IMG/VR virus record: IMGVR_UViG_3300043775_003319
Coordinates: 1-59,030 of that record
Strand: one strand, 5' to 3'
Origin: a virus
Length of the DNA stretch: 59,030 nucleotides
This document shows, in pieces, positions 18,827-42,357 of the stretch. The notes beneath the pieces were generated by a model. The model was not told the DNA's origin, searched no databases, and worked only from the letters and a program-made list of their open reading frames with translations. The position numbers were made by a program, and so were the translations under genes. Position 1 is the stretch's first letter, and every line of letters starts with the position of its first letter.

Positions 18827-18834
18827 AATTTTAT

Positions 18835-18847
18835 TATTAACCTAAAT
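18835..18847 (+). promoter_or_regulatory. TATTAACCTAAAT leader box
   Basis: Near copy of the box before the capsid gene, 11-23 nt upstream of the ATG at 18858. This supports a shared promoter or translation signal for abundant structural proteins. Confidence 0.4.
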
Positions 18848-18857
18848 AATTTATATT

Positions 18858-20492
18858 ATGTCTTATTTTCCACATGCCTACCAGAAGGCTTTAGTAGCTA
18901 ATTCGTTAGTGTCTTCATCTGGTACAGCAAGTTCTGCTTTAACTGCAGGTCAGCTTGCATTAATTAGTGCTACAACAAACGCGTCTGTTGCATTATCAAC
19001 TTCTTCTCCTGATTATGCTGTGACACCACAAGCGTATTTAGCACAAGGAAGTTTTCACACTGTAGATAAATTGGGACCTTATCATGGAGGTTACAAAGAG
19101 TCTGTAAAATCTAAAGGAATTAATCCTAAGTACATCAGTGCTTTTACTGTGTCTGAACCAAACAACCCTGTTCAAGATATTTTCCAAATATCTGCTACAG
19201 TAGGATGTGCTGTTACATGTAACACTACTTACAGATTAAGATTAGATCTTAAAGGTTCTCCAGCATTACGTTTTTTAACTCACAATGCTTATTACACTTT
19301 AGATGCTAACACAGGATGTTGTGATTCAAGTTCAAACAATGTAGATCCAAACATTGTATTGTTAGGATGGGCAGACAGATTGGCTTTATATCCAACTGTT
19401 AAAGATTTTGTACAAGGAACTGTATGGAATAGAGTATTAATTGCTGGTGGCGTTGCTGCTACTGGTGCTGCATCTGCAGCAGCTGGTATTTTAGGTATGA
19501 GTGACAAAACAGGTATTAATGCTGGTAATAGAGTGATTTTTACTCCAACTACTGCTTCATCTGCTACAGGTTCTACTATTAACGGTAACTTGTTTACTGT
19601 AGGTACAGCTGCTGCTACAGGATTTAGTGTAGGACAAGTGCTTGCTGGAACAGGTGTTGCTGCTGGTACAACTATTGTGTCTTTAGTTTCTGGTGGTGGT
19701 GGTACAGGTTCAACTTTTATAGTTAACATTGCACAATCTGTTGCTTCAACAACTATTACTTCAGCGTCTCCTTTGACTGCGTATGTTGCTGCAACTTACA
19801 CTCCTGGTACAGGTGCTGGTCCAGTACAACTTGCTGCTGCAGCTACTCTTCAAACTCCAAGTGCAACAAATTTAGGTACAATAACAACTGCTTCTCTTAC
19901 TGCTGTTAAAATTTATAATGCAATTAATTCAGCTACGTATGTACCATTAACAGGTGCTCCTTTACCTGATACTGTAGATTCATTCTTTGAAATTGTAGGT
20001 GCTTATGTAGACACTACATTTGGTGATTGTTCTTTCTCTCCTATAGATCACGTAGAATATCAACCAATTGAAATCTATGCGTCTGTTACAGCAATGGATC
20101 CATTAGGAAATCAATGTTTAGCACAGTGTTTTGTACCTGCAGAGGTTCAACAAGCTATTCAAGGTAGAGGTTTTGGTGAAACTCTTATGAGAGAATTAAT
20201 ATTAGCTAAGAGATATCAACAAGAACCATGGCAACAAGATCCACGTTTACGTGAGGTGCTTGATTATAATCCTTTTGGTGAAATCACTCGTGCTAACAAA
20301 TATCTTATTTATAACTTGTTACACAGTGTTCCTCGTAAGAGCAACCCTTCTGGAACAATGGATAATGATCAATATTTGATTAGAATTTTTGTACCTTCAA
20401 CAACAGGTCGTTTGACTGCTCTTGAGCAAGGTATTACTAAATGGTTACAAACTGCTAACAACTACGATTGTACTTTTACAGTATTACCGTAA
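18858..20492 (+). CDS. major structural protein, 544 aa, with an inserted decoration domain
   Basis: An abundant virion protein by leader and position. Two parts frame an insertion: residues about 1-190 and about 350-544 (with IEIYASVTAMDPLGNQCLAQCF and YNLLHSVPRKSNPSG) form the core. Residues about 225-300 are Gly/Thr/Ser-rich, with VGQVLAGTGVAAGTTIVSL and the closing VASTTITS. This GTGVAAGTTI pattern is a widespread Ig/beta-type decoration module in phage tail and capsid proteins. The core could be a tail sheath, major tail or head-surface protein; I cannot decide. A terminator follows directly. Confidence 0.6.
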   Translation: MSYFPHAYQKALVANSLVSSSGTASSALTAGQLALISATTNASVALSTSSPDYAVTPQAYLAQGSFHTVDKLGPYHGGYKESVKSKGINPKYISAFTVSEPNNPVQDIFQISATVGCAVTCNTTYRLRLDLKGSPALRFLTHNAYYTLDANTGCCDSSSNNVDPNIVLLGWADRLALYPTVKDFVQGTVWNRVLIAGGVAATGAASAAAGILGMSDKTGINAGNRVIFTPTTASSATGSTINGNLFTVGTAAATGFSVGQVLAGTGVAAGTTIVSLVSGGGGTGSTFIVNIAQSVASTTITSASPLTAYVAATYTPGTGAGPVQLAAAATLQTPSATNLGTITTASLTAVKIYNAINSATYVPLTGAPLPDTVDSFFEIVGAYVDTTFGDCSFSPIDHVEYQPIEIYASVTAMDPLGNQCLAQCFVPAEVQQAIQGRGFGETLMRELILAKRYQQEPWQQDPRLREVLDYNPFGEITRANKYLIYNLLHSVPRKSNPSGTMDNDQYLIRIFVPSTTGRLTALEQGITKWLQTANNYDCTFTVLP

Positions 20493-23225: not shown

Positions 23226-23471
23226 ATGAGTTGTCCTAATCAAGATTGCAATACAGGATGTAATTGCAATAATTGTTGCCCACCTGTTACTCCACCAACA
23301 CCTCCAACACCTCCTGCCTGTGATGGTACAGAATGTGTTGAATTGTATAATGCTGCTTGTATAAATTATACAGGACCTAACATACAATGTTTAGGAATAA
23401 CAACTAATGCAAATTTGAATGATGTAATACAAGCGTTTGCAACAGCATTATGTAATTGCATTGGTAATTAA
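23226..23471 (+). CDS. small protein with attachment module, 81 aa
   Basis: Cys-rich and Pro-rich start (DCNTGCNCNNCCPPV, then three TPP repeats), then residues about 37-79 repeat the module of the two neighbouring fiber proteins: AACINYTGPNIQCLGITTN and DVIQAFATALC. It is little more than the attachment module on a Cys/Pro leader. It could cap a fiber, serve as an adaptor, or be what is left of a larger fiber gene after domain shuffling. Confidence 0.6.
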   Translation: MSCPNQDCNTGCNCNNCCPPVTPPTPPTPPACDGTECVELYNAACINYTGPNIQCLGITTNANLNDVIQAFATALCNCIGN

Positions 23472-23496
23472 TAAATTACTAAAAAAAATAAAAAAA

Positions 23497-26136
23497 ATGT
23501 TTCCAAATACGCCATGTCCTGATTGCGATCCTTGTCCTGAACAAGTTGTACCATTACCATTACCTGATTTGTCAGAAATTTTATGTAATATTACATATGA
23601 TTCTACATGTGTAATATACACTGGACCAGATATAGAATGTCTTGGTATTACAACAAACATGACATTTGACGAAATATTTCAAATATTTTGTACTGCTGCA
23701 AACTCTTGTTGTTCTTATCAAGCACCTCAAAATTGTGTTACAAGTGCATGGTCAAGTTGGGGAGAATGTGTTTTAAACAAGGATGAAGATGAATATGAGC
23801 AAATAAGAACAAGAACTGTAATAACACCTGCGTTAAATGGAGGTACTCCTTGTGGACCTTTGATTGAAACAAGAACATGTGCTCCTGTTGAAATGTGTTT
23901 TACATTTGGTTCAGGATTATGTTACGATGATCAAGTTACACAATTAACAGTTGCTCCTGAAGGTATTATAAATGGTAAACCTTATTATGTTTTACAAAAT
24001 CCAAGCGGTGATCTTTGTGAATACGTTTATTATGTTTGGTTTAATTCATCAAATAATAAATGGCATTGTAGTCCAACAGAAGCTGTTGCAAGTATAACAG
24101 ACTCAACTTTAAATAACAATTCAAATCAGTATCCTGTTAGTAACAATACAACACAATTATGGGTTAATAATAATCCTGTAGAATATAGTTATTTATTGTT
24201 TTCGCAATTAAATACATGTTCTAATCCTGCTGTATGTTTTAATATTATATTAGAACCTGATAATGTTTCGTATCCACATGAATATTTTGTAAATGCTAAT
24301 CCTTCATTTTTATTTAACGATTCTAAATATCCTGTTTATAACTTTAAAGTATTAGTTGATTCTGAAGAACAAGATATAACTATTTATTATGACAATGAAC
24401 AATCAAAATGGATTGCTAATATTAATGAACAAGAAGTAGCAGAATTAAATGCTACAACATTTTATCCTATAGGTACGTGGACACATTTGTCAGGTGAGGA
24501 AAATTATATAAAAACATCATCTTTTAATAGTTGTGTTCAACCTCCAGATGTTGATTGTGTACTTTCTTGCGGAAACTGGTCAGCATGTGTAGGAGGTACA
24601 AGAACTCGTACATGTATTGTTGCAACACCTGCTTCTGGAAATGGTGAACCTTGTGGTGAACTAATTCAAACTGAAACATGTAGTACACCTTCTTGTAATC
24701 CTGTTAGAAACGTTGTTGTAACTCTTTCAGAAGATTATATAGTTATAACTTTTGATGAAAACATTGATGCACAGGAATACACAATTGTTTATACTACAGA
24801 TAACTGGGTTACAGAAACAGAGGTTACTGTCACAGAATCTCCATACAGTATTCCTTATAAATGTGGTGAATCATATGAAGGATATATTTCTGTATTGTGT
24901 GACAACGATATAGTAAGCAGTCAAGTAACGTTTAATATTAAAACACCAAATTGTCCGCCTCGTTCTTTAATTGGAGGATTTGGCATAGCAATACCTGCTG
25001 GAAATACTGTAGCATTAGATCAGCTTTTTAGCACAACTCTTCAGTTACCAAACTTAAATGTAGGTTCAGGTTCTGTTTTAAAAATGATAAGTATTCCTAA
25101 TGGATATATTTGCGCAGGAGAATTTTCTCAAGTTTTTATTGGTAATTCTTCACCTGTAACTGTTAACAGTATTGTACTTTTAAATGTAGATTTTACAATA
25201 AACAGTACTTTTTTTGGTTCAGGTTTTCAACAAAATACATCTCCTGGTATAATTTATGAACTGTATTACGACAGAAACACAGATCGTATATACGTTGGCG
25301 GCACATTTAATAAATACAAAGGCTCAGCGTGCACACCAAACTTTGTAGTTTTAAAAGCGTCATCAGGAAATATTGATAATACTTTTGCAGCAAATACTTA
25401 TGGTGCAGAAAATCAAAATGGAACACCTGCTATTAAAGCTATTACTGTTGATTCAAGTGGTGATGTGTGGGTTGGTGGTGAATTTACAAAAATGAATAAT
25501 AATATTAAACTACGATATTTGTGTAGATTTGATACTTATGGTGCAGTTGATAATGATTTGTACACAGGTATAAGTTTTCATTATTCTGTGGATCCTAGTT
25601 CAACTTCTATAAATACCATATTAACAGATAATCTTAATAATGCGTATGTAGGAGGGACCTTTAATTATTACGATACAATACCTTCACTTCAACATGGTCT
25701 TATTAAATTATTAAATAATGGTAGTTTAGACACGAGTTTTAGTACTGGTGTAATGAACTATAGTGGTTCATGTGCAGCACCTTCTGTAAACAAGTTAATA
25801 TTTCACAATTCAAGAATATTAGTAGGTGGTAATTTTATTACATACAATGGCACACAAGTTCCTGGATTTTTAAGAATAGACACAAGAGGTAATTTGGATT
25901 CTACATTTACTATTTTAAATCATACAGGACAAAGTTGTTCTGAAGTGTTTGAAATTGTAAGCAAAAACAATAAAATTTACATTGGTACAACTTATTTATC
26001 GTATGGAACAAATACTAAAAGATTATATTACGTTTTAAATTCTAATGGAGATTTGGATCCTAGTGTTAACAATACTGTTACAATACAATCTACAGCGAGT
26101 TATTACGGAATAAAATCTATTTTAATAGTACCTTAA
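23497..26136 (+). CDS. receptor-binding protein with TSP1 repeats and beta-propeller, 879 aa
   Basis: I start at ATG 23497 (MFPNTPCPDC), after a run of A. The attachment module follows at about residues 36-75 (CVIYTGPDIECLGITTN). Thrombospondin-1 repeats lie at about 80-132 (TSAWSSWGEC ... IETRTC) and 354-400 (CGNWSACVGGTRTRTC). An Fn3-like domain at about 402-490 comes next. Residues about 495-879 hold delta-60-type beta-propeller repeats such as RIYVGGTFNKYKG and VWVGGEFTKMNN. Extracellular-adhesion domains at the end of the tail module suggest binding to a host surface glycan or protein. A terminator follows. Confidence 0.8.
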   Translation: MFPNTPCPDCDPCPEQVVPLPLPDLSEILCNITYDSTCVIYTGPDIECLGITTNMTFDEIFQIFCTAANSCCSYQAPQNCVTSAWSSWGECVLNKDEDEYEQIRTRTVITPALNGGTPCGPLIETRTCAPVEMCFTFGSGLCYDDQVTQLTVAPEGIINGKPYYVLQNPSGDLCEYVYYVWFNSSNNKWHCSPTEAVASITDSTLNNNSNQYPVSNNTTQLWVNNNPVEYSYLLFSQLNTCSNPAVCFNIILEPDNVSYPHEYFVNANPSFLFNDSKYPVYNFKVLVDSEEQDITIYYDNEQSKWIANINEQEVAELNATTFYPIGTWTHLSGEENYIKTSSFNSCVQPPDVDCVLSCGNWSACVGGTRTRTCIVATPASGNGEPCGELIQTETCSTPSCNPVRNVVVTLSEDYIVITFDENIDAQEYTIVYTTDNWVTETEVTVTESPYSIPYKCGESYEGYISVLCDNDIVSSQVTFNIKTPNCPPRSLIGGFGIAIPAGNTVALDQLFSTTLQLPNLNVGSGSVLKMISIPNGYICAGEFSQVFIGNSSPVTVNSIVLLNVDFTINSTFFGSGFQQNTSPGIIYELYYDRNTDRIYVGGTFNKYKGSACTPNFVVLKASSGNIDNTFAANTYGAENQNGTPAIKAITVDSSGDVWVGGEFTKMNNNIKLRYLCRFDTYGAVDNDLYTGISFHYSVDPSSTSINTILTDNLNNAYVGGTFNYYDTIPSLQHGLIKLLNNGSLDTSFSTGVMNYSGSCAAPSVNKLIFHNSRILVGGNFITYNGTQVPGFLRIDTRGNLDSTFTILNHTGQSCSEVFEIVSKNNKIYIGTTYLSYGTNTKRLYYVLNSNGDLDPSVNNTVTIQSTASYYGIKSILIVP

Positions 26137-28165: not shown

Positions 28166-28837
28166 ATGATAACAATAGGTGAAGTACTTTCGAGAGTACG
28201 TAATCAAATAAAAGCAGTAAAGCAGGATGCTTTTCTTACAGATAGATTTTTATATTCTATGGTAATGAAGCATGCTAAAATGCTTGTGCGCAGACAAGAT
28301 ATACAAAATAGAATTATGAAATTCAACAGTGTATTTCAAGTGTTGAATTACGTTGAACTTATTGAAGTAGACCGTGCAGAATCTAAATGCCATTGTATTA
28401 CATCTGGTTGTACATTTAAACGTACAAAAAATAAATTGCCAAACATGATGGAAGGACACTGGGGACCTATTTTTAGATCTGTAACTTCATTGGATTTGTC
28501 AGAAGAAGTATCACCTACCTATCCTAATATTTATGAAAAAATGTCTAATCAAAAAACATTTAAGTATAATAAAAAGAAATACTATTGGTTTATGGATGGA
28601 CATGTTTATTTTCCAAATTTAGAATGGGATGCTGTAAGAATTGAAGGTGTGTTTGAAGGTGATATTAGCGGATACAACTGCGACACTGAAGACGATTGTA
28701 TGTATATACAAGACAAAAATTTTGCTATTCCTGAATATTTATATGCAGAAATTGAACAAAATGTTATTAAAGATTTAGGAGCAATGATGGCTGTACCATC
28801 TGATCCTCAACAAGATAATAGAAACATTATTAATTAA
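28166..28837 (+). CDS. probable structural connector protein, 223 aa
   Basis: I associate this pattern with a conserved structural protein of crAss-like phages: an opening GEVLSRVRNQIKAVKQDAF (residues about 5-23), then RFLYSMVMKHAKMLVRRQD, followed by NKLPNMMEGHWGPIFRSVTS, and a beta-rich end with VYFPNLEWDAVRIEGVFEGD at about 150-169. The likely location is the connector/tail ring under the portal. The family memory is from protein patterns, not from a search. Confidence 0.65.
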   Translation: MITIGEVLSRVRNQIKAVKQDAFLTDRFLYSMVMKHAKMLVRRQDIQNRIMKFNSVFQVLNYVELIEVDRAESKCHCITSGCTFKRTKNKLPNMMEGHWGPIFRSVTSLDLSEEVSPTYPNIYEKMSNQKTFKYNKKKYYWFMDGHVYFPNLEWDAVRIEGVFEGDISGYNCDTEDDCMYIQDKNFAIPEYLYAEIEQNVIKDLGAMMAVPSDPQQDNRNIIN

Positions 28838-28845
28838 AATGTATC

Positions 28846-29949
28846 ATGGCATTAACTGAACCACAATATAGAACTTTTGATGATCTTTTAGACAGTGTAA
28901 AAATTGATTTATATACATGGGATCTTGAAGGATTAATAACACCACAACAACTTATTAAAGTTGCAATACGTGTAAATTATGATTTAGGATTACGTATTAA
29001 TCAGTCGCGTTCTAAAGCAATTGAAATACACAAAGGAAAAGGAAAGCTTCCTCAAGACTTTTATGTATTAAATTTTGGATTAGTTTGTGAAGAACATTAT
29101 ACTGAAGAAATACCTACATATAATAAAACATACACTGAAGGTATTTTAGAAGGTGTTACTCTTGCTCAAAATTTTTTAGCAGATAAATTTGTTAATCAAT
29201 CTACTACCATAATGGATATTGTGCAAGGCATTAATATTATTAATCATCAATTACATACGCAAAACATTATTGTACAAGCATTTGGTTCTGACGGTGTAGC
29301 GTTAGATTTTGATATTAATATTATTGATTCTGAAAACATAAGTATTATATCCGAATCAAGTGTTACTATTACAAATGTTAAAGTAATAATAATGGGTGCA
29401 AAAATTAGTACAATGGGTACTGGTTCAGGTTCATGTCCTGCTTTACTTGATTGCACTGCAGATGGCACACCTCGTGTTCATTATGTTACAAATGGAAAAA
29501 GAACAGATAGCAAAAGTCTTATTCCTTTAAGAATGCAAAAATCTAAATCTATATCTGATGATTGTTTTAATTTAAACGCAAAAGGAAGATATGACGCATA
29601 TTTAAAAAATGGATTTATTCATACTAATTTTGATGAAGGTGTTATTTATATTAATTATCAATCTTTAATGGAAGATGATGATGGTAATTTACTTGTATTA
29701 GATCATCCTTATTGTAATGAGTATTATGAATATGCATTAAAGCAACGTGTTTATGAAAATTTATTTATGAGTGGTGAAAGTGTTTCCAATCATTTACAAC
29801 TTATGGAACAAAAGTTAAGAGGAGCACGTGCAAACGCTTTATCATTTGTAAACACTCCAGATTTTGCAGAAATGAAAAAAGTTTGGGAAATGAATAGAAA
29901 AGCACAATATCATAATTATTATAACATGTTTAAAAGTTATATGTACTAA
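28846..29949 (+). CDS. probable tail connector or hub protein, 367 aa
   Basis: Starts with an N-terminal helical segment including FDDLLDSVKIDLYTWDLEGL (residues about 8-27) and QQLIKVAIRVNYDLGLRIN, followed by beta-rich regions (DGVALDFDINIIDSENISII) and a helical C-terminus (AQYHNYYNMFKSYMY). In crAss-like phages such proteins follow the 'RVRNQIKAVKQDAF' protein as here, in the head-tail region. Only 3 nt separate it from the giant tail gene, so they are probably co-translated. Confidence 0.55.
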   Translation: MALTEPQYRTFDDLLDSVKIDLYTWDLEGLITPQQLIKVAIRVNYDLGLRINQSRSKAIEIHKGKGKLPQDFYVLNFGLVCEEHYTEEIPTYNKTYTEGILEGVTLAQNFLADKFVNQSTTIMDIVQGINIINHQLHTQNIIVQAFGSDGVALDFDINIIDSENISIISESSVTITNVKVIIMGAKISTMGTGSGSCPALLDCTADGTPRVHYVTNGKRTDSKSLIPLRMQKSKSISDDCFNLNAKGRYDAYLKNGFIHTNFDEGVIYINYQSLMEDDDGNLLVLDHPYCNEYYEYALKQRVYENLFMSGESVSNHLQLMEQKLRGARANALSFVNTPDFAEMKKVWEMNRKAQYHNYYNMFKSYMY

Positions 29950-29952
29950 GAC

Positions 29953-32900
29953 ATGGCAGAAGAAACAAAAAATACAGGAAATCCACAATTGATTAACAGC
30001 TTTATCAAAGGCATGGTAAAAGACAATACAGATGTCTATATACCAGAAGGCGTTTGGACAAATGCTATTAATGCAATTAATAATTCACACACAGGTGAAT
30101 TAGGTGCGATAGGAAACGAACAATCAAATTTATATTGTACAACTTTTCCATACACTGTAATAGGTGTAATTAATAAATATAAAACAGAATGGGTTATATT
30201 TAGTACAAATAACATTGACTCTGAAATAGGAGTTTTTGATGAGGCTACATGTACCTATACTAAAAAAGTAAACGATAAATGTTTAAATTTTAGTACTTAT
30301 AATTTAATTACAGGAGCTGTCAAAATGAATTATGATGGTTCATATTCTGTTTATTGGCAAGATAATTTGAATCCTGATCGTGTAATGAATTTGGATGATG
30401 ATAAGATACCATATGTTTGCACAACACCTACAATAACTGTAGATAAAATTTGGAACAATTATACAGTTACAAGAGCTGCTCAAGCTAATCCTTGTGGTCA
30501 ATCTACTAATTCAGGAGGTCCTGGTGTAACAAATACTGTACATTCACTTGGTGATAGTTACGGTGTTGTTACAATAGATTACGAAATGTACACTGTTAAA
30601 GATAAACTTGAAGTGTGGTTTGATGCAGACCCTGCAACAGATCCTCCTACAGCAACAACAAGTGTTCCTGTATCAGGAACCGGTACAGTAACTTTTAATA
30701 AATTTACGTCAACTTCTACTTGCTATGTAAGAGTAACAGGACCTAACAATACAGAATGGAAATATACTGTAAATTGTCCAGTTGTTACAGCAACTACTCC
30801 TCCTATGCCTGTAATACCAACAGGTATATTTTACACAGATACTTCTAATAATATTGTAGAAGTTCCTTCATTAGGATACGGTCAATCTATTACTATATGC
30901 GCTTTGGCACAAAGTATTGATATTGTAAACATTGTAAATGGATATACTATATCTGCTCCATTAGCAATCTGTAACGAGGTTCATGATACAATTCCTGATC
31001 CTGATGCTTGTGGTGCAAAAATTTGTACTGACCAATTAGATTGTGACGCTTTAAGATTACATCCTTTAGTAAAACAGCCTTGTGTTACAATAAATAAATC
31101 AAAAGGTAGTGGTCAATTAAACAATGGTTCTTATCAGGCTGTTATTGCATATTCTGAGAAAGGTATTAAACTTACTGATTACAGTATGCCAAGTAATATT
31201 CAATCATTATGGGATCATACTGGAATGGGTGGATCTTTAGATATTACAATTGACAATATTGATAAAAACTTTGAAGAATACGAGTTAGTAATAATTGCTA
31301 CAATTAATCAACAATCTGTTGCAAAAAAGATTGGTTACTACTCAACAGAACAAACAAAGGTTCATTTAGATTTATACAATGCTTCGTTAATAACAGTGGA
31401 GTTATCACTTATACCTGTTAAAAATGTAGTGTATGAAAAAAGTGAAAAAATGTTTGATGTAAACGGTTATTTAGTACGTTCTGCTTTAACTACACAACCC
31501 TTTTTTAATTATCAACCTTTAGCAAATAATATAAAATGCAATTGGGTTGCTGTTCAATATCCTGCAAGTTATTATTGGGATGGTGGAAATGAAACAGGTT
31601 ATTATAGAGACGAAGTGTATCCATTTTTTATAAGATGGGTTTATAAAACAGGTGCTAGATCAGCATCTTTTCACATACCTGGTAGAGCATCTTTACCAAG
31701 TGATCTTACAGTATTACCTGTTACAAATCCTGATTTAATAGATCCAACACGAAGAAAATATTGGCAAGTGTATGACACGTCTACTATTACAAGCATGGCT
31801 ACAGATGATAGAAACGATGGAGGTCTTATAATTGCTCGTGGTGACATGGCATATTGGGAATCTACAGAATTATATCCAAATAGTCATCCTGAAATATGGG
31901 AGGATTTATGTAATAAACCTATAAGACATCATAAGATGCCTTCTAATGAAACTATTCATATTCATGACATAACTGGTAATTATATAAATGTATTAGGGGT
32001 AGAGTTTACAAATATTAAACACCCTGTAGATTTAGATAATAATCCTATTCTTGATATTGTAGGATATGAAATACTTAGAGGATCACGTGAAGGAAACAGA
32101 AGTATATTGGCAAAAGGTCTTTTTAACAATATGGTTCAATACGACATGCAAAATAATGTAACTCAAAAAGGATTGTTTCAAAACTATCCTTATAATGACG
32201 TTACTACACCTGATCCGTTTTTATTGTCTTCTAATAATTTAGAAGTACAAAATGATATATTTTCATTTCACTCGCCTGAAAACAATTTAGTAAAACCTTA
32301 CATGGGTTCTGGTGGACATATAAAAATGTATACAGAAGAACTAGGTAATTCTGAAACATATGGTTTAATACCTTACAAACATCCTAAATTTAAGTACATA
32401 CACGAAGATATATTTGCAGCAAGTGCTGTTATTGCAACAGGTATTGCACTTTTAACATTGTTTGGAAAACAATCAAGTTCTTATACAACAACTGCTCATA
32501 CAAGCACAGGTGGTGAAATTTGGGTAGGTTCTGCATTAGCAGGGTATGTTGTAAATAGAATTCCTACAGTTAATTTTGATACTTCTACTACAAATCAAAG
32601 TGAAGGAGGACTTTCGTCAACTGGTGCAACAATGGTTGTAAATCAAATATCAGCAGGTGCTGACGCTGCATTTAGTGGAGGAACAGGTTTTGCAAAATAT
32701 GCAGCTATTTTTACAACTATTGTTCAAGCAGCATTACAAGCAGAAATGACTTTTATTCAATCATTACAAACAATGATTGATATTATTTATAACATTATTA
32801 ATTACAACGACTATGTTGTACAATTAAATAGTCATGCGTTTTATAATTCTTACTCTAATGTTGTAAACACAAACACTCCATCTTTATTAAAACCTTCTAT

Positions 32901-35667
32901 TACAAGACCTGTTGCTTCTCAAGGTGCAAAATATGTTAGCTCAGGACTTCAAGATTTTAATTCTACACAAAGAATTAACAACTTAAATAGAAATAAATTT
33001 TTGGCAGTGCAGTCTAAAACAGATATTCCTAATACGTATAACGTTGATGATTCTAAACAATTATTATCAGACACCGATAACATTAGTAAAATATATACAA
33101 CAAAAACTGCATCTTATTACGGAGCAATAAAAGTAGATTACGAAAATCAATATGGACAACTGTACTCTATTGTGCAAATTCCTGTTAATTCTTGTGTATA
33201 CGAAACACTTGACGATGTTACGTTATCACACACAACTTCTCAAATATTTGGTGGTGATATTTATATAAATAGATATACAGAAAAAAATACATATTATTTT
33301 TATAATACATGGTTGATTGATGTACCAAATGGTACAGAATGGAATTACCAAAATTATGTAAATGGTCCTACACCTGTTTATTGGTTAAATTCTAAAAGAT
33401 ATCAAGCTACAGATTTTGATATATCATTAGACTGGGGTTTAATACCTGAATTTGAATTTGATACACCTAGTGATTATTATAATTTACATGGTAAAAAATC
33501 AACAGGACAACTTATACGTTCAAGTTTTAAAAACGCTTGGATGTACTTGTCTTACAATGGTGTTAGAGATTTTTTTACTGAATCTGAATTAAACGTTGCA
33601 TTTAGAGATTATGGTGAAGAACCTTGGGAAAAATTTTATGATCCTGTTGGTAATTCTTTTACTGATTTAGACACAATGTTTAGAAGCGATATTATAACAA
33701 AACCTGTTTATTATGAATATGACTTGTCACTTAGCGCATCGAAATTATACAGTAACTTTGCTTCATGGGCAAATATTTTACCAAGGGACTATGATCCAAC
33801 CCTCTATACCAGCTACTTTGAATACTACCCACGAAGAATTGTGTATTCATTACAGCAACAAGAAGGACTTAAAAGAGACAACTGGAGAAATTATTTACAA
33901 AATAACTATAGAGACTTTGACGGAAAAATAAGTACTATAAAAACTTTAAATGCTCAAGGCGCAATAATGTTATTTGAAGATATTGAACCTACACAATTTG
34001 TAGGTGTTGATACTTTTGAATCACAAGGAGGTGTAAAATATACAATAGGTGACGCAGGTTTGTTTCAACAAAATATGCAATCTCTTGTAAATGCTGATGA
34101 TGCTTTTGCTTATGGTACATGTATATCAAGTAAATCAGCTGTAAATACACCATATGGTTTATTTTGGGTATCACAACAAACAGGAAAAATTATTAATTAT
34201 TCAGGTGGAGGAATGGATGAAATTTCTAAAGACGGAATGAAACACTGGTTTTTAGAAAATCTTCCGTCACCACTTTTAAAAAAATATCCTGATTTTAAAT
34301 TGTATGATAATGTAATTGAAGGTATATCTGTGCAATCAATTTTTGATTCTCAATATGATCTTTTATATTTTACTAAAAAAGATTATGTACCTAAACCAGA
34401 GTTTGATGAAATAATTGATTGTTTAGTTTATATTAATGGTGAAGGATATTTTATTAATCAATCTGAATGTGATGGTCAAGGATATTTACAAACTTGTCCA
34501 CAAGGTTATACACTTGTTGCTGGTGAATGTCAAAAAACAAACATTACAAATATATGTAGTGAAGGATACACTTATAATTCTGTAACAAATAAATGTGAGG
34601 CTACAATACGTGTAGCAGCAACATGTTGTAATACAGTGGCTCCTGTTGCAAATGCTTCTCAAAGTTTTTGTTCTGGTAAAACAGTTGCTGATTTACAAGC
34701 TGTTGGACAAAGTTTAAAATGGTATTTACTACCTGTAGGGGGTACTGCATTATTGTCAACAGATGTTTTAACAAATGCTACATATTATGTTTCACAAACA
34801 ATAAGTGGTTGCGAAGGTCCAAGATCTGCAGTAATTGTATCTTTGATTGTTGTTGCACCTCCTACAGCAACTTCTTTACAAGAATTTTGTTTAGCAGGTC
34901 GTACAGTTGCTGATTTAGTTGCTACAGGAAATTCTATTAAATGGTACGCTGCAGCGACAGGAGGTTCTGCTTTAAGCAGTAGTACATTACTAGTAGATGG
35001 TCAAACTTATTATGCAACACAAACTGTAAATGGTTGTGAAAGTGCAAGAAAAGCAGTAACTGTAAATATAAATGCAATTGAATGGGCAGCTAAAAACTTA
35101 GAGGTTACTACTTATAGAGATGGCACACCAATACCACAAGTTACTGATGCAACACAATGGGCAAATCTTACCACTGGCGCATGGTGTTATTATGAACATA
35201 ATTCTGCTAATGGTCCTGTGTATGGTAAACTGTATAATTGGTATGCTGCAGTAGGAATACATAATTCTGCATCATTGACAGATCCTTCGTTAAGAAAACA
35301 AATTGCACCTGTTGGATATCGTGTACCTACAGAAGCTGAATACACTACATACATAAACTGTTTAGGTGGAATATATATTGCAGGTGGTAAAATGAAAGAA
35401 ACAGGTCTTGCACATTGGAATAGTCCTAACGAAAGTGGTACTAATTCTAGTGGTTTTACAGGTGTAGGAAATGGTTTTAGACCTGAAGGAAATTCTCATG
35501 TTTTTGCAAGATTAAAAGAATGGGCGCAATTATGGATTACTGATTATGATGCTAGTCAAACCACACAACCTGCTAAAGTTTTGAGTTTACAATATGATTA
35601 TGCAATTGTAGGTTTTAGCAGAAGAAATCCTAAATTTGGTGCAGGAATTAGATGTATAAAAGAATAA
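29953..35667 (+). CDS. giant tail protein with Ig-like and FISUMP C-terminal cassette, 1904 aa
   Basis: The N-terminus (INSFIKGMVKDNTDVYIPE, then SNLYC ... VIFSTNN-DSEIGVFD) resembles the large beta-propeller tail ('stabilization') proteins of crAss-like phages. A hydrophobic stretch lies at about residues 820-842. At about 1515-1556 a Cys-rich linker (CPQGYTLVAGECQ; NICSEGYTYNSVTNKCE) leads to two Ig-like adhesin domains at about 1558-1706 (SFCSGKTVADLQAVGQSLKWY; YATQTVNGCESARKAVTV). A FISUMP domain at about 1710-1903 follows (AKNLEVTTYRDG, GYRVPTEAEY, GAGIRCIKE). The last two are typical of secreted Bacteroidota proteins. It is probably a tail/receptor-recognition component. Confidence 0.78.
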   Translation: MAEETKNTGNPQLINSFIKGMVKDNTDVYIPEGVWTNAINAINNSHTGELGAIGNEQSNLYCTTFPYTVIGVINKYKTEWVIFSTNNIDSEIGVFDEATCTYTKKVNDKCLNFSTYNLITGAVKMNYDGSYSVYWQDNLNPDRVMNLDDDKIPYVCTTPTITVDKIWNNYTVTRAAQANPCGQSTNSGGPGVTNTVHSLGDSYGVVTIDYEMYTVKDKLEVWFDADPATDPPTATTSVPVSGTGTVTFNKFTSTSTCYVRVTGPNNTEWKYTVNCPVVTATTPPMPVIPTGIFYTDTSNNIVEVPSLGYGQSITICALAQSIDIVNIVNGYTISAPLAICNEVHDTIPDPDACGAKICTDQLDCDALRLHPLVKQPCVTINKSKGSGQLNNGSYQAVIAYSEKGIKLTDYSMPSNIQSLWDHTGMGGSLDITIDNIDKNFEEYELVIIATINQQSVAKKIGYYSTEQTKVHLDLYNASLITVELSLIPVKNVVYEKSEKMFDVNGYLVRSALTTQPFFNYQPLANNIKCNWVAVQYPASYYWDGGNETGYYRDEVYPFFIRWVYKTGARSASFHIPGRASLPSDLTVLPVTNPDLIDPTRRKYWQVYDTSTITSMATDDRNDGGLIIARGDMAYWESTELYPNSHPEIWEDLCNKPIRHHKMPSNETIHIHDITGNYINVLGVEFTNIKHPVDLDNNPILDIVGYEILRGSREGNRSILAKGLFNNMVQYDMQNNVTQKGLFQNYPYNDVTTPDPFLLSSNNLEVQNDIFSFHSPENNLVKPYMGSGGHIKMYTEELGNSETYGLIPYKHPKFKYIHEDIFAASAVIATGIALLTLFGKQSSSYTTTAHTSTGGEIWVGSALAGYVVNRIPTVNFDTSTTNQSEGGLSSTGATMVVNQISAGADAAFSGGTGFAKYAAIFTTIVQAALQAEMTFIQSLQTMIDIIYNIINYNDYVVQLNSHAFYNSYSNVVNTNTPSLLKPSITRPVASQGAKYVSSGLQDFNSTQRINNLNRNKFLAVQSKTDIPNTYNVDDSKQLLSDTDNISKIYTTKTASYYGAIKVDYENQYGQLYSIVQIPVNSCVYETLDDVTLSHTTSQIFGGDIYINRYTEKNTYYFYNTWLIDVPNGTEWNYQNYVNGPTPVYWLNSKRYQATDFDISLDWGLIPEFEFDTPSDYYNLHGKKSTGQLIRSSFKNAWMYLSYNGVRDFFTESELNVAFRDYGEEPWEKFYDPVGNSFTDLDTMFRSDIITKPVYYEYDLSLSASKLYSNFASWANILPRDYDPTLYTSYFEYYPRRIVYSLQQQEGLKRDNWRNYLQNNYRDFDGKISTIKTLNAQGAIMLFEDIEPTQFVGVDTFESQGGVKYTIGDAGLFQQNMQSLVNADDAFAYGTCISSKSAVNTPYGLFWVSQQTGKIINYSGGGMDEISKDGMKHWFLENLPSPLLKKYPDFKLYDNVIEGISVQSIFDSQYDLLYFTKKDYVPKPEFDEIIDCLVYINGEGYFINQSECDGQGYLQTCPQGYTLVAGECQKTNITNICSEGYTYNSVTNKCEATIRVAATCCNTVAPVANASQSFCSGKTVADLQAVGQSLKWYLLPVGGTALLSTDVLTNATYYVSQTISGCEGPRSAVIVSLIVVAPPTATSLQEFCLAGRTVADLVATGNSIKWYAAATGGSALSSSTLLVDGQTYYATQTVNGCESARKAVTVNINAIEWAAKNLEVTTYRDGTPIPQVTDATQWANLTTGAWCYYEHNSANGPVYGKLYNWYAAVGIHNSASLTDPSLRKQIAPVGYRVPTEAEYTTYINCLGGIYIAGGKMKETGLAHWNSPNESGTNSSGFTGVGNGFRPEGNSHVFARLKEWAQLWITDYDASQTTQPAKVLSLQYDYAIVGFSRRNPKFGAGIRCIKE

Positions 35668-35683
35668 TATAAAAAATAAAAAA

Positions 35684-36625
35684 ATGGCTTGCACATGTCC
35701 AGATCCTAGTTGTACACAAGTAGTAATCAATAGTATTACATATTGTGATTGCGTTGTTAGTGTTTCTCCACAAATATGTCCTCCAGGATGTATTACAAGT
35801 GTTGAAACAAACGAGTGTTTATGTACAGAAACAGTTGATCCTATTAGTAATCCTGTATTAATACCTATTGATATTAAAGATTATTTAGAAGAAATTCGAT
35901 GGACAATAAGTTATGATCCAAAAATAAAAACATGGTTATCATTTCATGATTGGCATCCTGAATGGCTGGTTCCTTCTTTTAATCATTTTTTAACAATTAA
36001 GACTACAGGTTCACAAACACCTGTTACAAAAATTTGGAGACACAACGTTAGAAAAGATAGTTTTGCAAATTACTATGACCAAAATTTTCCATGGGAAATA
36101 GAATTTCCTATTGTAACACCGAACACAATAACAACCTTGAGAAGTTTTGAATATACACTTGATGTGTATAAATACTTTAACAATGGTAAAGATTTTAATC
36201 ACGCATTAGATGAAAACTTTGATAGAGCTATTATTTATAATTCTGAACAAAACAGTGGGTTATTAAAATTAAATTTAAAATCAAAAAATAATCCTTTGTC
36301 TTTATTAAATTATCCAATCGTTAATAATTTTGATATTGATATACAGTACAGCAAAGAAGAAAATAAGTTTAGATTTAATCAATTTTACGATGTTACTAAT
36401 GATAGAGGTGAGTTTTCAGGAAACAATGTTCCGATGTGGGTGACACAAGAAGATGGTTATCATAAAAACTTTAACGTTCCTTATTATAATTTTAACAAAG
36501 CGCCTTTAGAGCATAAAAAGTTTAGACATTATGGTAATAAAGTCATTTTGCGAAAAAACATAAGCAATGATAAAAAAATGATTCTTAAATTTGTTAATAA
36601 TAAATACTTAATAAGTCCAAGGTAA
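35684..36625 (+). CDS. probable detached C-terminal part of the tail protein, 313 aa
   Basis: A Cys-rich start (CICTxxC-type: CTCPDPSCTQ, then QICPPGCITSVETNECLC) aligns with the linker before the Ig cassette in the preceding protein. The rest begins YLEEIRWTISYDPKIKTWLSFHDWHPEW and ends in a beta-rich part with FDRAIIYNSEQNSGLLKLNLK and KAPLEHKKFRHYGNK. In related tail proteins, as I recall them, such segments are the C-terminal continuation of the same polypeptide. The start is ATG 35684 in an A-rich leader, so it is expressed separately. Confidence 0.65.
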   Translation: MACTCPDPSCTQVVINSITYCDCVVSVSPQICPPGCITSVETNECLCTETVDPISNPVLIPIDIKDYLEEIRWTISYDPKIKTWLSFHDWHPEWLVPSFNHFLTIKTTGSQTPVTKIWRHNVRKDSFANYYDQNFPWEIEFPIVTPNTITTLRSFEYTLDVYKYFNNGKDFNHALDENFDRAIIYNSEQNSGLLKLNLKSKNNPLSLLNYPIVNNFDIDIQYSKEENKFRFNQFYDVTNDRGEFSGNNVPMWVTQEDGYHKNFNVPYYNFNKAPLEHKKFRHYGNKVILRKNISNDKKMILKFVNNKYLISPR

Positions 36626-39600
36626 TGGCTACAAACAAAGACATATTGATGAAATTCATCACAGGACAAGTTGAAAAAACTCGTCAGGATGTATCTGAAA
36701 AAGGATATAAAGATAATTCACCTTATAAAAACAATCCTTCAAACACTATTTATGGTACACCGGAAGGAACATCTATAACAATGAAAGGTGTGAGTACTCC
36801 TCTTATTGGTATAGATGAGTTTGGTAATAAGCAATACATGGAGCCTGGACAAGAATATTTCTTTCCAGGTTCTCAAGTTACCGAAACACCTTTTGCAAAA
36901 TATGGAGGATTGCTTAACAAAACAGTTACATGTTCTAATTGCGGTTGGTCATGGAAAGCTGCTAATGGAGGTAATGATGTTTCTACTTGTCACAAATGTG
37001 GTAATGAAAACAAAATAATGCAAACAGGTGGTGAAGCGGATTTTAACAAAGTAAAAGAATGGTATAATAATTATATAGATTCGCCACTGTATAAAAGAAA
37101 TTTAGAAAATTCAGGATACCCTGATGTTGACAAAGTAATTGAACAAAGAAAGTCAAATATAGGTAAAACAGAATTTTTAAATGATGAAAACAAATTTGGT
37201 ACATACTACCAACCTAATACTAATGTAATTCATTACTCTCCTGAAAAAGATTCAGAAATTTGGTCTAAAGATTATGATTCTGTTTTACCAACTGATTCTG
37301 TATTAGCACATGAATTTGGACATGCTGTTTTAGATAATAGTAAAACTTTTTTTGGAAGACAGACACCTGCTTATAATAGATACGACTATCAACAATTAGA
37401 GTCAAGAAATAAAGATAGAAAAATATCAAGAGGCGCTAATGAAAACTATGCTGATCAAAAAGCGTTACAATACGAGGCTGCAAAACTTAACATTTATAAA
37501 CCTGGTTATGAAGAGTTTACAAAAGAACATTTAGAAGCATTACCTTCTGATGTTAAAGAAAGAGCTTTAAAAAATTATTCAGAAGAAGATCTTATTTGGT
37601 TAATGAACAACATTGCTCAAAATGACAATGATGTAAATAATAATTTATCTCTTGCTCAAACAGGAGGTGAGCAAATGTTCAATGTTTCATTAAATGAACC
37701 AATGATAATACCTTCTCAAGGCAGTTATCCTTTAAGTTATAAAGATAGAGGTGATAGAGATACTGATGGCACTTTGTTTACATCTGCTAAAAAAGTAAGT
37801 AGAGTAGATGAAAATGGTAAACCTTTATCTGCACCTCAGATTAGAGAAAATCAATTAATGTGGAATATGCAAAAACTTGCGTATAGTCCTTATCAACAGT
37901 CTTTTAATATTTGGAAAAACAATGCTCAGAATAGTGCTCAAGGTTTTTATAATCCTCGTGAGTACTCTAAATATTTAAGTAAAATAAATTCTGGTCCTGA
38001 TGTAGGATTAGATGGATTATGTGATCCTAATTTTTCATCTACTAAATGTGGTACTTCTAAACAACATGCAAAGGAAGATAAAAAAGAATGGTCTAAAAAA
38101 CAATTTGGAGGTGACTTATACTCAGATTATAATCTTCCTATTGCTCAAGATGGCGGAAGAGCTACAAGAGCTGATAGTCTTGCTTTATATAATAATAGTG
38201 TAAAAGTAGAATCTTATTATAATAATAAAAATTATAAAAATGATCATGTAAATTATCATCAAAATCCTTATGCTCATAAAATGAATGATGATGAAGTTAA
38301 AGAGTTTAAACATAGAGGCAGCAGAGCCCAAGTTCCTACTAAAAACAATGAATCAACAGAAATTAAACTTCCTAATAACATTTATAGAAAAGATATAGAT
38401 AAAAATAAATATTTACAAAGAGAATTGGCTACTAGGATTTTAGACACTCGAGCACCAATGCAATTATTTGATAGAAGAATAACCCCAACATCTTTTAAGT
38501 CTTTTAAAAATATTAATGAAAATGATATAATGGATGGAGATGCTATAACTTTATCTGGATATGATCCTATTTCTGTAAAACCATTTGATTTATTGACAGA
38601 AAAAGAAAAAAAACTTAGAATTGAAAGATATGGTATGGATGGTGTACCTAAAAGTTATTTATCTAAAAAATCAATAAAAAAAGAAACAGATAAACCTATT
38701 AAAGTTAAACCAGAACTGCAACCAAGAGTGGAAGCTATAAACTTATCACTAATGCAAAATCAAGATCCATCGTTCCCTAAACAAGAACTGGATTTGATAA
38801 GACCTATACAAGCTCCTAAATCTTATAATGTTAATATGCAAAGATATAACATGAAAGGACCTAGTGATTATTATCAAGCTAATGAAGAAGGTGTTGATTA
38901 TCAAAGAGCTATGGAAATCAAAGCTGCTTCAGATGCATATAACAAATACATACAAGAAAAGTATGGTAATGAAGATGCTCTTAAAAATCCAAAAGCTGTA
39001 GAGAGATTAAAACAGTTAAGAAGTGAATTTAACATAGAATCTAATTATAAATTTGGAGGAGATTTGTATCAATATCAAAACGGTTCTCAAACATGGGATA
39101 AACAAAAACAAAATCTTAAAAATGAAAAATTAGAAAAATTAAAAAGATTATTAAGTTTACCAGATCCTGTTTTTAAAGCAAAAACTTTTGAAGAAAAAGT
39201 TGCTGAAAAAATGGAACAAGAAAAATATAAAACTACTTCTAAAGATAACACTACTGTAAGAAATTATAATAATGCTAATAAACATTCTAATGCTGCAAGA
39301 AATAAAACAAACAAAGAATTTGCAGATGAAAGACAAGCAAAAATAGATGCACAAGTTCAAGCAAACAAACAACCTTTTGATTGGAACAATTTTAGACAGT
39401 CTTTGTCAGATAGAAGTCAGGCAACAGGAGATGCTATGAGAATATCAAATGAACCTAACTTTTTTGATGATTATATAAATCCTGCAGTAATGATAGGAAG
39501 TATGGCAGATAATTTAGGTCAGGCACCTTTAAGAGCGCAACAAGAAGATTCTTATATGCCTTATGTAACATCTGTTGGAGCACCTTTGCTTACAGGTGCT

Positions 39601-42357
39601 TTAGCAGGAATTGGTACAAAAAATACAGGTCAGTTTATAAATAATGTAGTTAATCCTTTAGCAGGATTTGGAATTAAAAAAGGAACGGTCAAAGGTGAAA
39701 TACCTAAAATAGGAGATGACTTTGCAAATGCTATTCATAATCTTGATGGAGATAAAATATTTTATGATACTACTGACACAAGTAATTTTTTAAAAGGTGA
39801 ATGGAAATATGTAGATGAGTTACCAAATGAAGGAGGAATTTCAGAAGTAGAGCCTTTTAATAATGCACTTGACGAGCTAATTGTTAAAGCAACATATGCT
39901 GAAAAACCTTTACTTACAAAAAAAGACTTTTTTACAAATAAAGAACTTGTCGATAAAATAGCAAAAGAACGCAGTTATTGGGATAAGTTTTTTAAATTTT
40001 CTGATGAATATCCTTTAAGTGATGCTGATATGGTATTTGACAAAAAATTTCCTGAACTTAAAGCTGGCAGTTTTAAAGAAAAGTTCATGACACCAGAACA
40101 ATATAATTATGCAAAATCTAAATTAGGTATATTTGGCGATCTTGGACATCAAGATATTACAAATCCTACAATATTTAAAAAACAATTAGATTCAAATTGG
40201 AATAATGCACAAGCATTTGATGCTCAAGATTTTCAAAATGCATTACGTAATACAATTTTTGAAAGAACAGGTAAAATTAAAAATGCAAATCCTGATTATT
40301 TAAAATCTCTTATAAAAAGTGATGAAATATTAACACCTGAACTTTTAAATAGAATGGGAACTATGGAAAATTATACAGGTAATCAGGCTTTTAAAACTTT
40401 AAATGCCAATAAATATGGAGGTATTATTAACTTTTTACAAAAAGCACAAGAAGGAACAACTGTTACCGTAGATCAAGGTGATGGTATTAAAAAAAAAATA
40501 TTAACCGATTCAAGAGAATATTCTGATGCGTACAATGAAGGCAGAATTGGTGTAAAAAATGATGACGGAAGTATTTCTTTTAATCCTTTAAATGAAGTTG
40601 TTGTCACTCCTTATGATAAAGAATATCCTTTTTATCAAGAATTATCAGATGAAGAAAAGAAATATTTTAATGATGATACTCCAATAGGAAGAGCTGTTAG
40701 AAGAAAAGCATATACAAAAAATTCATTAAGTGACGATGTAACAGATATTGCAGCTCCTATATTATATGGAACTGCAGCAGCAATGCTTGCACCATATGCA
40801 TTAGCTCCACTTGTAGCAGGATTAGAATTTGCAGGTGCTGCAGCTGCTCCATACGTTGAAGGAGCATTAGCAACTTCTTTACCAGGTATGTCTTCTATTC
40901 CAGGAGCTACTGTTGGTAATGCTATTAATGCAGGTTTTGCAGGACATGGTTTATATAATATTGCACCTGATGCTGTAGAAATGTATAATAATCCATCTTG
41001 GAGTAATGCAGGTAATGTAGGAATGGATGTTTTAGAAATTGCACCTGTTGCAGGACCTGCAGGAAGAATGATAGGTGAAGGAATATCAACTGTAGGAAGA
41101 ATGCCAAAACAACTACCTGGTTCTAGTACTGTTGATTATGCTAATTCTATAAAAGATGTTGTTACAACATTTAAAAATAGAAATAAAAAATTATTAACTG
41201 TTGGTGCTGAAAATTTAGATAAAGAGTTGTTAAAAAAAATTGAACAACTTGAGTCTCCTGAAGGATTTAGTAGATTAGTTACACAAGAAGCTGAAATGTT
41301 AAAAAGAGATTTTCCTTTATTAGAACGCATAATAGATGTAGAAAAAAAAGCAGTCAGCAATGCTCATACAAGAATTTCAGAATTGTATCAAACAGCTTTG
41401 CAGGGAAATTTTAACAGAAATTATTTAGAAGCTAAAAAATTAAATCCTGGATTAACACCAAAAGAATTTGGAATACCTACAAATAATGCGTTTTTTAGAC
41501 AGGGTTTAGGTTCAAGTAATTATTCAGATAATGCTCTTAATTTAAGTAAAGAACCAAGTTTAAGAGATAATGTTTTTTCAAATACATATTATAATGCTGA
41601 GCTTCCTGGAGAAATAGCAATTGGTAGAGAGTATGCAGAAGCAATGCCTGTCTATGATCATGAAATAAATCATGCTTTACAAAATAGTAGAAATACTACT
41701 TTAGATGATTTACTTAGAAAATATTTTAATAATTCAGAAAACTTATCAGAAAACTTATCAGAAAAAACAAAAAAGGCATATAATTATTTTAGAAAAAATA
41801 AAGTTGGCATGCCTTCAAGAGAACCATCATCATTTTTAGCTGAGGCAAGAAGATCAATGTTAGAAAGAGGATTAATAAAAGATATCTATGAACCAATTAC
41901 TCCTAAAAAAGTTTTTGAGGCAATGAAACATTTTAAAAAAGAACCTTATATAAATCCTTATACTGAACAATCATATCATAGATTATTTGATTTTGCTGAT
42001 GATCATCCAAAAACTTTGAAATTTTTATCAAGCATGTTTAACAAGCTTCCTGCAGCAGTTCCTGTTGGTTTGGCAGTAAGCGCTGCATCTCAAGCAGAAA
42101 CAAAAAAAGAACCTGTTTCAGGAATGAAAAAAGGAGGTGTGACTAAATTGTCAGAACTTGATAAATTAGCAATACAAGAGTTAGGTGGAATGTTACATGT
42201 AAATGATAAATTACCACATGAACAATCGATAGTAAAATATCTTGGTCCTGAAAAATCTGTTTTAAATTTTATGAAACAAAAAAAAGCAATTGGAGGTTTT
42301 GTACCTTTTAACGAATATTACAGAGAAAACATTATAAATCCAAGAAATAAATCGTAA
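36625..42357 (+). CDS. giant virion-cargo-like protein with two zincin motifs, 1910 aa
   Basis: The start is in the stop codon region of the previous gene (TAATGG). A zinc ribbon lies at residues 103-125 (C-x2-C-x15-C-x2-C), a zincin motif HEFGHAVLD at 229 and a second HEINHALQ at 1679. Hydrophobic segments lie at about 976-995 and 1373-1440 (AAMLAPYALAPLVAGLEFAG), possible membrane-penetrating regions. Short x-Gly-Gly motifs recur at 93, 134, 346, 494, 509, 810, 1264 and 1836. Large size, peptidases and hydrophobic helices fit an injected 'polyvalent' protein that is processed or processes others. It is rich in Lys, Asn and Tyr. Confidence 0.65.
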   Translation: MATNKDILMKFITGQVEKTRQDVSEKGYKDNSPYKNNPSNTIYGTPEGTSITMKGVSTPLIGIDEFGNKQYMEPGQEYFFPGSQVTETPFAKYGGLLNKTVTCSNCGWSWKAANGGNDVSTCHKCGNENKIMQTGGEADFNKVKEWYNNYIDSPLYKRNLENSGYPDVDKVIEQRKSNIGKTEFLNDENKFGTYYQPNTNVIHYSPEKDSEIWSKDYDSVLPTDSVLAHEFGHAVLDNSKTFFGRQTPAYNRYDYQQLESRNKDRKISRGANENYADQKALQYEAAKLNIYKPGYEEFTKEHLEALPSDVKERALKNYSEEDLIWLMNNIAQNDNDVNNNLSLAQTGGEQMFNVSLNEPMIIPSQGSYPLSYKDRGDRDTDGTLFTSAKKVSRVDENGKPLSAPQIRENQLMWNMQKLAYSPYQQSFNIWKNNAQNSAQGFYNPREYSKYLSKINSGPDVGLDGLCDPNFSSTKCGTSKQHAKEDKKEWSKKQFGGDLYSDYNLPIAQDGGRATRADSLALYNNSVKVESYYNNKNYKNDHVNYHQNPYAHKMNDDEVKEFKHRGSRAQVPTKNNESTEIKLPNNIYRKDIDKNKYLQRELATRILDTRAPMQLFDRRITPTSFKSFKNINENDIMDGDAITLSGYDPISVKPFDLLTEKEKKLRIERYGMDGVPKSYLSKKSIKKETDKPIKVKPELQPRVEAINLSLMQNQDPSFPKQELDLIRPIQAPKSYNVNMQRYNMKGPSDYYQANEEGVDYQRAMEIKAASDAYNKYIQEKYGNEDALKNPKAVERLKQLRSEFNIESNYKFGGDLYQYQNGSQTWDKQKQNLKNEKLEKLKRLLSLPDPVFKAKTFEEKVAEKMEQEKYKTTSKDNTTVRNYNNANKHSNAARNKTNKEFADERQAKIDAQVQANKQPFDWNNFRQSLSDRSQATGDAMRISNEPNFFDDYINPAVMIGSMADNLGQAPLRAQQEDSYMPYVTSVGAPLLTGALAGIGTKNTGQFINNVVNPLAGFGIKKGTVKGEIPKIGDDFANAIHNLDGDKIFYDTTDTSNFLKGEWKYVDELPNEGGISEVEPFNNALDELIVKATYAEKPLLTKKDFFTNKELVDKIAKERSYWDKFFKFSDEYPLSDADMVFDKKFPELKAGSFKEKFMTPEQYNYAKSKLGIFGDLGHQDITNPTIFKKQLDSNWNNAQAFDAQDFQNALRNTIFERTGKIKNANPDYLKSLIKSDEILTPELLNRMGTMENYTGNQAFKTLNANKYGGIINFLQKAQEGTTVTVDQGDGIKKKILTDSREYSDAYNEGRIGVKNDDGSISFNPLNEVVVTPYDKEYPFYQELSDEEKKYFNDDTPIGRAVRRKAYTKNSLSDDVTDIAAPILYGTAAAMLAPYALAPLVAGLEFAGAAAAPYVEGALATSLPGMSSIPGATVGNAINAGFAGHGLYNIAPDAVEMYNNPSWSNAGNVGMDVLEIAPVAGPAGRMIGEGISTVGRMPKQLPGSSTVDYANSIKDVVTTFKNRNKKLLTVGAENLDKELLKKIEQLESPEGFSRLVTQEAEMLKRDFPLLERIIDVEKKAVSNAHTRISELYQTALQGNFNRNYLEAKKLNPGLTPKEFGIPTNNAFFRQGLGSSNYSDNALNLSKEPSLRDNVFSNTYYNAELPGEIAIGREYAEAMPVYDHEINHALQNSRNTTLDDLLRKYFNNSENLSENLSEKTKKAYNYFRKNKVGMPSREPSSFLAEARRSMLERGLIKDIYEPITPKKVFEAMKHFKKEPYINPYTEQSYHRLFDFADDHPKTLKFLSSMFNKLPAAVPVGLAVSAASQAETKKEPVSGMKKGGVTKLSELDKLAIQELGGMLHVNDKLPHEQSIVKYLGPEKSVLNFMKQKKAIGGFVPFNEYYRENIINPRNKS

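What the first reader, a model, noticed from the sequence alone, without database searches (positions are those of the whole stretch)
34440..35830. Adhesin cassette appears to have split a tail gene in two
The 1904-aa protein has a Cys-rich linker (NICSEGYTYNSVTNKC) just before its Ig-FISUMP cassette. The next protein (35684) begins with a similar linker (QICPPGCITSVETNEC) and continues with a segment that would complete the tail domain. The most economical explanation is insertion of the cassette inside an ancestral single tail protein, giving a new stop and a new start.
Basis: partly seen in the sequence, partly recalled or inferred. Interest (0 to 1): 0.7.

Follow-up and report, generated by a model that had tools for sequence, protein, structure and literature searches.

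The report
Phage tail muzzle split beside adhesin
In this crAss-like phage the large protein that closes the tip of the tail, one chain in nearly all relatives, is encoded as two chains that divide a single blade of its propeller, and an exchangeable adhesin-type module hangs on the new free end of the first chain.

Summary
The 1904-aa ORF (29953-35667) and the 313-aa ORF (35684-36625) are two halves of one crAss-like "muzzle" (tail-tip) protein, homologous to phiCrAss001 gp44. Of 87 distinct related loci with both parts, 84 are single ORFs, including distant phages and a near relative, L004 (72% and 79% identical), with no cassette. The 313-aa protein folds like the C-terminus of gp44 (7QOK 1197-1371, Z 12.8). 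The break lies in a loop of one propeller blade, the family's insertion hot spot, filled elsewhere by von Willebrand A and other modules.

One refinement: the Ig-FISUMP cassette did not necessarily cause the split. Four other contigs have the split with other cassettes or with the insert on the second chain, and all second chains start with a similar Cys-rich module (MAC.C). On the core tree split and undivided states interleave, so the linker block was gained, lost or exchanged repeatedly. In the L004 phage a FISUMP domain sits on a separate gene, of which the window keeps only an 81-aa stump. Reassembly of the two chains into a working muzzle is inferred, not shown.

The parts
29953..35667 (+). 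Muzzle chain 1 (1904 aa): muzzle core (residues 1-1482), Cys linker, then C-terminal Ig-Ig-FISUMP cassette
34327..34392 (+). End of the muzzle core on chain 1: the two strands (SVQSIFD, LLYFTKKDYVP; equivalents of SAQAIFD and LLYFTKKDYKP in L004) of the divided propeller blade that chain 1 keeps
   Evidence: alignment A3; AF2 model of undivided L004
34495..34599 (+). Two class-1 Cys linker repeats, CPQGYTLVAGECQ and CSEGYTYNSVTNKCE; the second ends at the insertion point
   Evidence: homologous repeats in L002, L005-L009
34630..35073 (+). Two Ig-like domains (Ig_7, CHU_C associated); the boundary of the first is approximate
35062..35661 (+). FISUMP (Fib_succ_major) domain, C-terminal on chain 1
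35665..35683 (+). TAA stop and 16-nt A-rich spacer before the new start (80% A in the last 20 nt, highest of 12 starts compared)
   Evidence: gaps of 15-18 nt in the other split loci
35684..36625 (+). Muzzle chain 2 (313 aa)
35684..35767 (+). Start module MACTCPDPSCTQVVINSITYCDC.. (class-2 Cys repeat carrying the new start), shared by the split loci
35768..35884 (+). Second class-2 Cys linker (CPPGCITSVETNECLC) and lead-in to the core; its counterpart follows the class-1 linkers directly in L005/L006/L007/L009
35885..36085 (+). Remaining strands of the divided blade (TISYD, TWLSFH) and the last blade; contains site B, the loop where L005-L009 carry a von Willebrand A-type insert
36086..36622 (+). 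C-terminal beta-sandwich, probably the ring-joining domain (assignment inferred from position and fold)
   Evidence: domain description in PMC10172136
23226..23471 (+). 81-aa ORF homologous to residues 1-77 of the separate 551-aa FISUMP protein of the L004 phage; a stump without the FISUMP part

Best explanation
The two ORFs are one muzzle protein (the crAss-like tail-tip nozzle) divided into two chains at a loop inside a propeller blade. This loop, site A, is an insertion hot spot where members of the family carry adhesin-type modules, often flanked by small Cys repeats. In the window's lineage the linker block gained a stop and a new start, so chain 1 ends with an exposed Ig-Ig-FISUMP module and chain 2 supplies the rest of the divided blade, the last blade and the C-terminal domain that probably joins the tail barrel. 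Most likely the chains are made from adjacent genes and assemble as a split propeller in the muzzle, perhaps fastened by linker disulfides, with the module displayed at the tail tip to bind the host surface. Shown: homology, undivided and empty-site relatives, derived state, predicted fold of chain 2. Inferred: reassembly, disulfides, display and binding function.
For: (1) 84 of 87 distinct loci with both parts are single ORFs, including all distant outgroups. (2) L004: undivided, 1791 aa, no cassette, 72% and 79% identical to chains 1 and 2. (3) L005/L006/L007/L009 have class-1, class-1 and class-2 Cys repeats joined at the place where the window has cassette, stop and start. (4) The split is real: the same arrangement in four other contigs, gap 15-18 nt, second chain always starting MAC.C. 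(5) The window and the other split loci are nested among undivided ones in the tree. (6) Fold: chain 2 residues 70-310 match 7QOK (phiCrAss001 muzzle) 1197-1371, Z 12.8, rmsd 2.3 over 173 residues, next unrelated row 7.1; the undivided L004 C-terminus matches 7QOL 1021-1371, Z 18.5. (7) Every insertion of 70 aa or more relative to L004 in 73 undivided homologues falls at site A or site B. (8) Other site-A inserts include VWA domains.
Against: No protein-level evidence that both chains are made or assemble. AF2 was run on the L004 C-terminus and on chain 2 separately, not as a two-chain complex, and the L004 model is only moderately confident (pLDDT 78). The split is polyphyletic on the core tree (about four changes by my count on the trees), which also allows an older split with later re-fusions, or exchange of the linker block between phages. 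No direct repeat marking an insertion event was recognised at the cassette edges.
Confidence: 0.83

Rival explanations
1. Strict version of the first reader: one insertion of this Ig-FISUMP cassette created the stop and the start at the same time.
For: The cassette ends at the stop and the second start follows 16 nt later; cassette GC is raised.
Against: L002 is split the same way but carries a different cassette; L046 is split with almost no chain-1 cassette; the start modules are similar between split loci, so the split or the start module can exist without this cassette.
Confidence: 0.2
2. The split arose once in the ancestor of the twelve-tip clade (window clade plus L100/L102/L103/L104/L105) and several members re-fused the gene later.
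For: Start modules are similar between both subclades (46-71% identity to the window). L100 has the same kind of segment in frame without Met (EPAFCDPENCIIDEDEATCTC).
Against: Needs about four re-fusions on the core tree; L004 has no linkers at all; block exchange by recombination is as economical.
Confidence: 0.3
3. A sequencing or assembly error or frameshift breaks a single gene.
For: The two ORFs are adjacent and in different frames.
Against: The same break with a TAA stop, an A-rich spacer and a MAC.C start recurs in four other contigs.
Confidence: 0.01
4. The 313-aa ORF is an independent accessory tail protein that happens to lie beside the muzzle gene.
For: It is a complete ORF with its own start.
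Against: It is the C-terminus of the muzzle in 84 undivided loci and has that fold.
Confidence: 0.03

Closest known systems
phiCrAss001 muzzle protein gp44 (PDB 7QOK/7QOL; PMC10172136)
   Same: Collinear homology; chain 2 matches residues 1197-1371 and L004 matches 1021-1371; ring-protein genes next to it
   Different: gp44 is one chain of 1371 aa with a very short loop at site A. The published length variation is in the crass and IG2 domains; here the insertions and the break are in propeller loops
csAssE-Sib muzzle protein (2257 aa) and Cellulophaga phage phi4:1 gp042 (2289 aa, structural by MS according to the record)
   Same: Single-chain homologues covering both ORFs
   Different: Undivided; phi4:1 has about 320 aa at site A
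T7-type nozzle proteins
   Same: Propeller and ring-joining domain at the tail tip (according to PMC10172136)
   Different: No IG or crass domains; no adhesin cassette or split examined here
Ig_7 (CHU_C associated) and FISUMP domains, known from Bacteroidota proteins (own knowledge)
   Same: The cassette domains pass Pfam gathering scores
   Different: Here fused to a phage tail-tip protein

Membership tests
Crassvirales muzzle protein (gp44-like) | Sequence homology to single-chain muzzle proteins over both halves | tested here: met
Crassvirales muzzle protein (gp44-like) | C-terminal propeller blades and C-terminal domain with the gp44 fold | tested here: met
   chain 2: Z 12.8 to 7QOK 1197-1371; undivided L004: Z 18.5 to 7QOL 1021-1371
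Crassvirales muzzle protein (gp44-like) | Gene next to crAss-type ring proteins | tested here: met
   CrAss_Ring_2 at 28166-28837 and CrAss_Ring_1 at 28846-29949 above Pfam cut-off
Crassvirales muzzle protein (gp44-like) | IG1, IG2 and crass fold in the central part | not tested
   only the C-terminal region of L004 and chain 2 were modelled
Crassvirales muzzle protein (gp44-like) | Single polypeptide (usual, not a published criterion) | tested here: not met
   two ORFs in different frames in the window and a split in four other contigs; this is the variant feature, and the pair of chains together is the member
Crassvirales muzzle protein (gp44-like) | Hexameric assembly at the tail tip | not testable with these tools
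   needs virions or a solved complex
FISUMP domain (PF09603/TIGR02145) | Profile score above the curated cut-off | tested here: met
   102.7 bits against 33.9; 59.2 against 41.65
VWA domain in site-B inserts of L006 and relatives | Profile score above the curated cut-off | tested here: inconclusive
   L006 passes VWA_2 (28.0 against 27), L007 is below the cut-off, L009 has no VWA match

The most novel reading that the evidence does not exclude
The break inside the propeller blade is itself useful. The free C-terminus of chain 1 is a plug-in place for exchangeable adhesins, and binding of the adhesin pulls on a blade held together without a peptide bond, so that the split muzzle acts as a receptor-triggered gate for DNA and protein ejection.
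Probability: 0.1. Interest if true: 0.85.

Novelty: new variant of a known kind. Interest (0 to 1): 0.56.

Why it matters
The muzzle is a conserved tail-tip protein of crAss-like phages, described as a gatekeeper whose contact with the cell surface is only presumed (PMC10172136). Here one propeller loop is the main place where adhesin-type modules are inserted, exchanged and even separated by a gene break. That gives concrete candidates for the host-contacting part of the tail tip, and a natural split propeller with undivided and empty-site relatives for comparison.

Tried and rejected
Sequence searches of solved structures found no muzzle match; only fold comparison did. A search of bacterial and archaeal genomes for the chain-2 domain gave none. 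A search of viral contigs for near relatives of the cassette gave none, so its source is unknown. Pfam found nothing in the L002 cassette or in the L042/L046 chain-2 inserts. Direct repeats at the cassette edges were not convincing. Hypotheses rejected: sequencing error, unrelated 313-aa protein, readthrough fusion (different frame). IQ-TREE could not be run with the threads asked for; FastTree was used. The linker test is a simple composition shuffle. Papers searched did not describe a split muzzle or FISUMP on a muzzle, but only titles, abstracts and hit lists were looked at and the library is incomplete. One Pfam call failed on wrong coordinates and was repeated.

Full report
What is there. 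ORF 29953-35667 (1904 aa) is followed after TAA and 16 nt by ORF 35684-36625 (313 aa) in another frame. PHROG 37948, whose profile is 2289 positions long, is matched by the first ORF at 1314-1767 and by the second at 2050-2244. The neighbours are CrAss_Ring_1 and CrAss_Ring_2 genes, so this is the tail block of a crAss-like phage. The record is a virus contig of 59030 bases.

Identity. In distant phages both ORFs match one gene: Lbo-JY46 (1654 aa), phi4:1 gp042 (2289 aa, structural by MS according to its record), csAssE-Sib (2257 aa, annotated muzzle protein), Fpv1 (1783 aa) and MT837925. phiCrAss001 gp44, the muzzle solved by cryo-EM (PMC10172136), aligns collinearly with L004 (L004 1321-1668 to gp44 1025-1304, hhalign probability 68%). 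AF2 models from family alignments match this protein best. Chain 2 residues 70-310 match 7QOK 1197-1371 with Z 12.8, rmsd 2.3 over 173 residues, where the next unrelated row has Z 7.1. The C-terminus of L004 matches 7QOL 1021-1371 with Z 18.5, rmsd 4.0 over 329 residues. Sequence searches of the PDB did not find it.

Where the break is. In the L004 model the strands SAQAIFD and LLYFTKKDYKP come before, and FEKIEWTISYD and IWLSFH after, the loop that holds the break (residues about 1512-1545). Read as the four strands of one blade, the loop lies between the second and third strand; the blade is probably the last but one (counting inferred, coordinates not inspected). Propeller-like matches of the L004 model end near model residue 332; the rest, chain 2 residues from about 135 on, is a beta-sandwich and probably the ring-joining domain (inferred).

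Relatives. Searches of viral contigs and phage records gave 87 distinct loci with both parts: 84 undivided and 3 split, plus the window, plus L105, whose second chain runs off the contig. Site A is about 24-45 aa long when empty and up to about 805 aa when filled. Relative to L004, every insertion of 70 aa or more in 73 undivided homologues falls at site A or at site B, the next hairpin loop. Pfam finds VWA in the site-A inserts of L100, L019 and L039 and, more weakly, in the site-B inserts of L006 and L007; the window has Ig_7 and FISUMP.

Empty sites. L004 has a plain loop and no Cys repeats. L005, L006, L007 and L009 have two class-1 repeats (CPxGYxYNxxTxxCE) followed by one class-2 repeat (two Cys, a gap, then CxC) in one frame. 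The window has two class-1 repeats, then cassette, stop and start, then two class-2 repeats, the first of which carries the new start.

Split loci. Window (1904+313), L002 and its near-identical L003 (1833+314), L042 (1487+738), L046 (1376+762) and L105 (1517+more than 251). Gaps are 15-18 nt, spacers are A-rich, and all second chains begin MAC.C. The window's start module is 64% identical to that of L002, 71% to L046 and 46% to L042. L002 has an unrelated cassette on chain 1; L046 has hardly any; L042, L046 and L105 have an insert at the N-terminal side of chain 2. L100 carries a segment like the start module, in frame and without Met.

Polarity. In the core tree split loci occur only within two sister subclades, mixed with undivided ones; everything outside is undivided. 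So the split is derived, but on this tree it needs about four changes. Repeated splitting, one split with re-fusions, or exchange of the linker block are all open. Several nodes in question have low support.

Where the cassette may come from. FISUMP occurs once in the window. Among eight relatives it is found only in the L004 phage, on a separate 551-aa protein with a second domain, Lcl_C. Its FISUMP region is 49% identical to the window's, and its first 77 residues are 57% identical to an 81-aa ORF of the window (23226-23471) that has no FISUMP part. This fits a module that changes address between virion genes, but direct transfer is not shown.

Mechanism. Inferred: the two chains are made from neighbouring genes and assemble as a split propeller; Cys linkers may form disulfides (phiCrAss001 tails contain disulfides); the cassette on chain 1 is displayed at the tail tip and takes part in binding the cell surface. 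None of these steps is shown by sequence.

Verdict. The idea that this very cassette made the stop and the start is weaker than an insertion hot spot whose linker block acquired the break and whose cassettes were exchanged.

Noticed in passing
window 23226-23471; L123:1331-2986: An 81-aa ORF of the window is homologous to the first 77 residues of a 551-aa FISUMP plus Lcl_C protein in the L004 phage; the window's copy stops after this part.
   Followed up: partly
L005, L006, L007, L009, site B (window equivalent about 36000-36025): An insert of about 340 aa, von Willebrand A-type in L006 and L007, sits in a second propeller loop, flanked by the same kind of Cys linkers.
   Followed up: partly
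L100:8956-16608: 2550-aa undivided muzzle with about 805 aa at site A that hold a VWA domain and a second stretch resembling the L046 chain-2 insert.
   Followed up: no
L042, L046, L105: Split muzzles in which the site-A insert lies on the second chain and chain 1 ends in a small domain or nothing.
   Followed up: partly
window 36625-42357; L123:14376-18392 and 18397-20415: The 1910-aa gene after the muzzle corresponds to two adjacent genes (1338 and 672 aa) in the L004 phage; another fusion or split.
   Followed up: no
window 23437-26136: Cys-rich adhesin-type protein whose start resembles the 81-aa ORF before it (23226-23471); it contains WSxW..C stretches that look like thrombospondin repeats (read by eye, not searched).
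   Followed up: no
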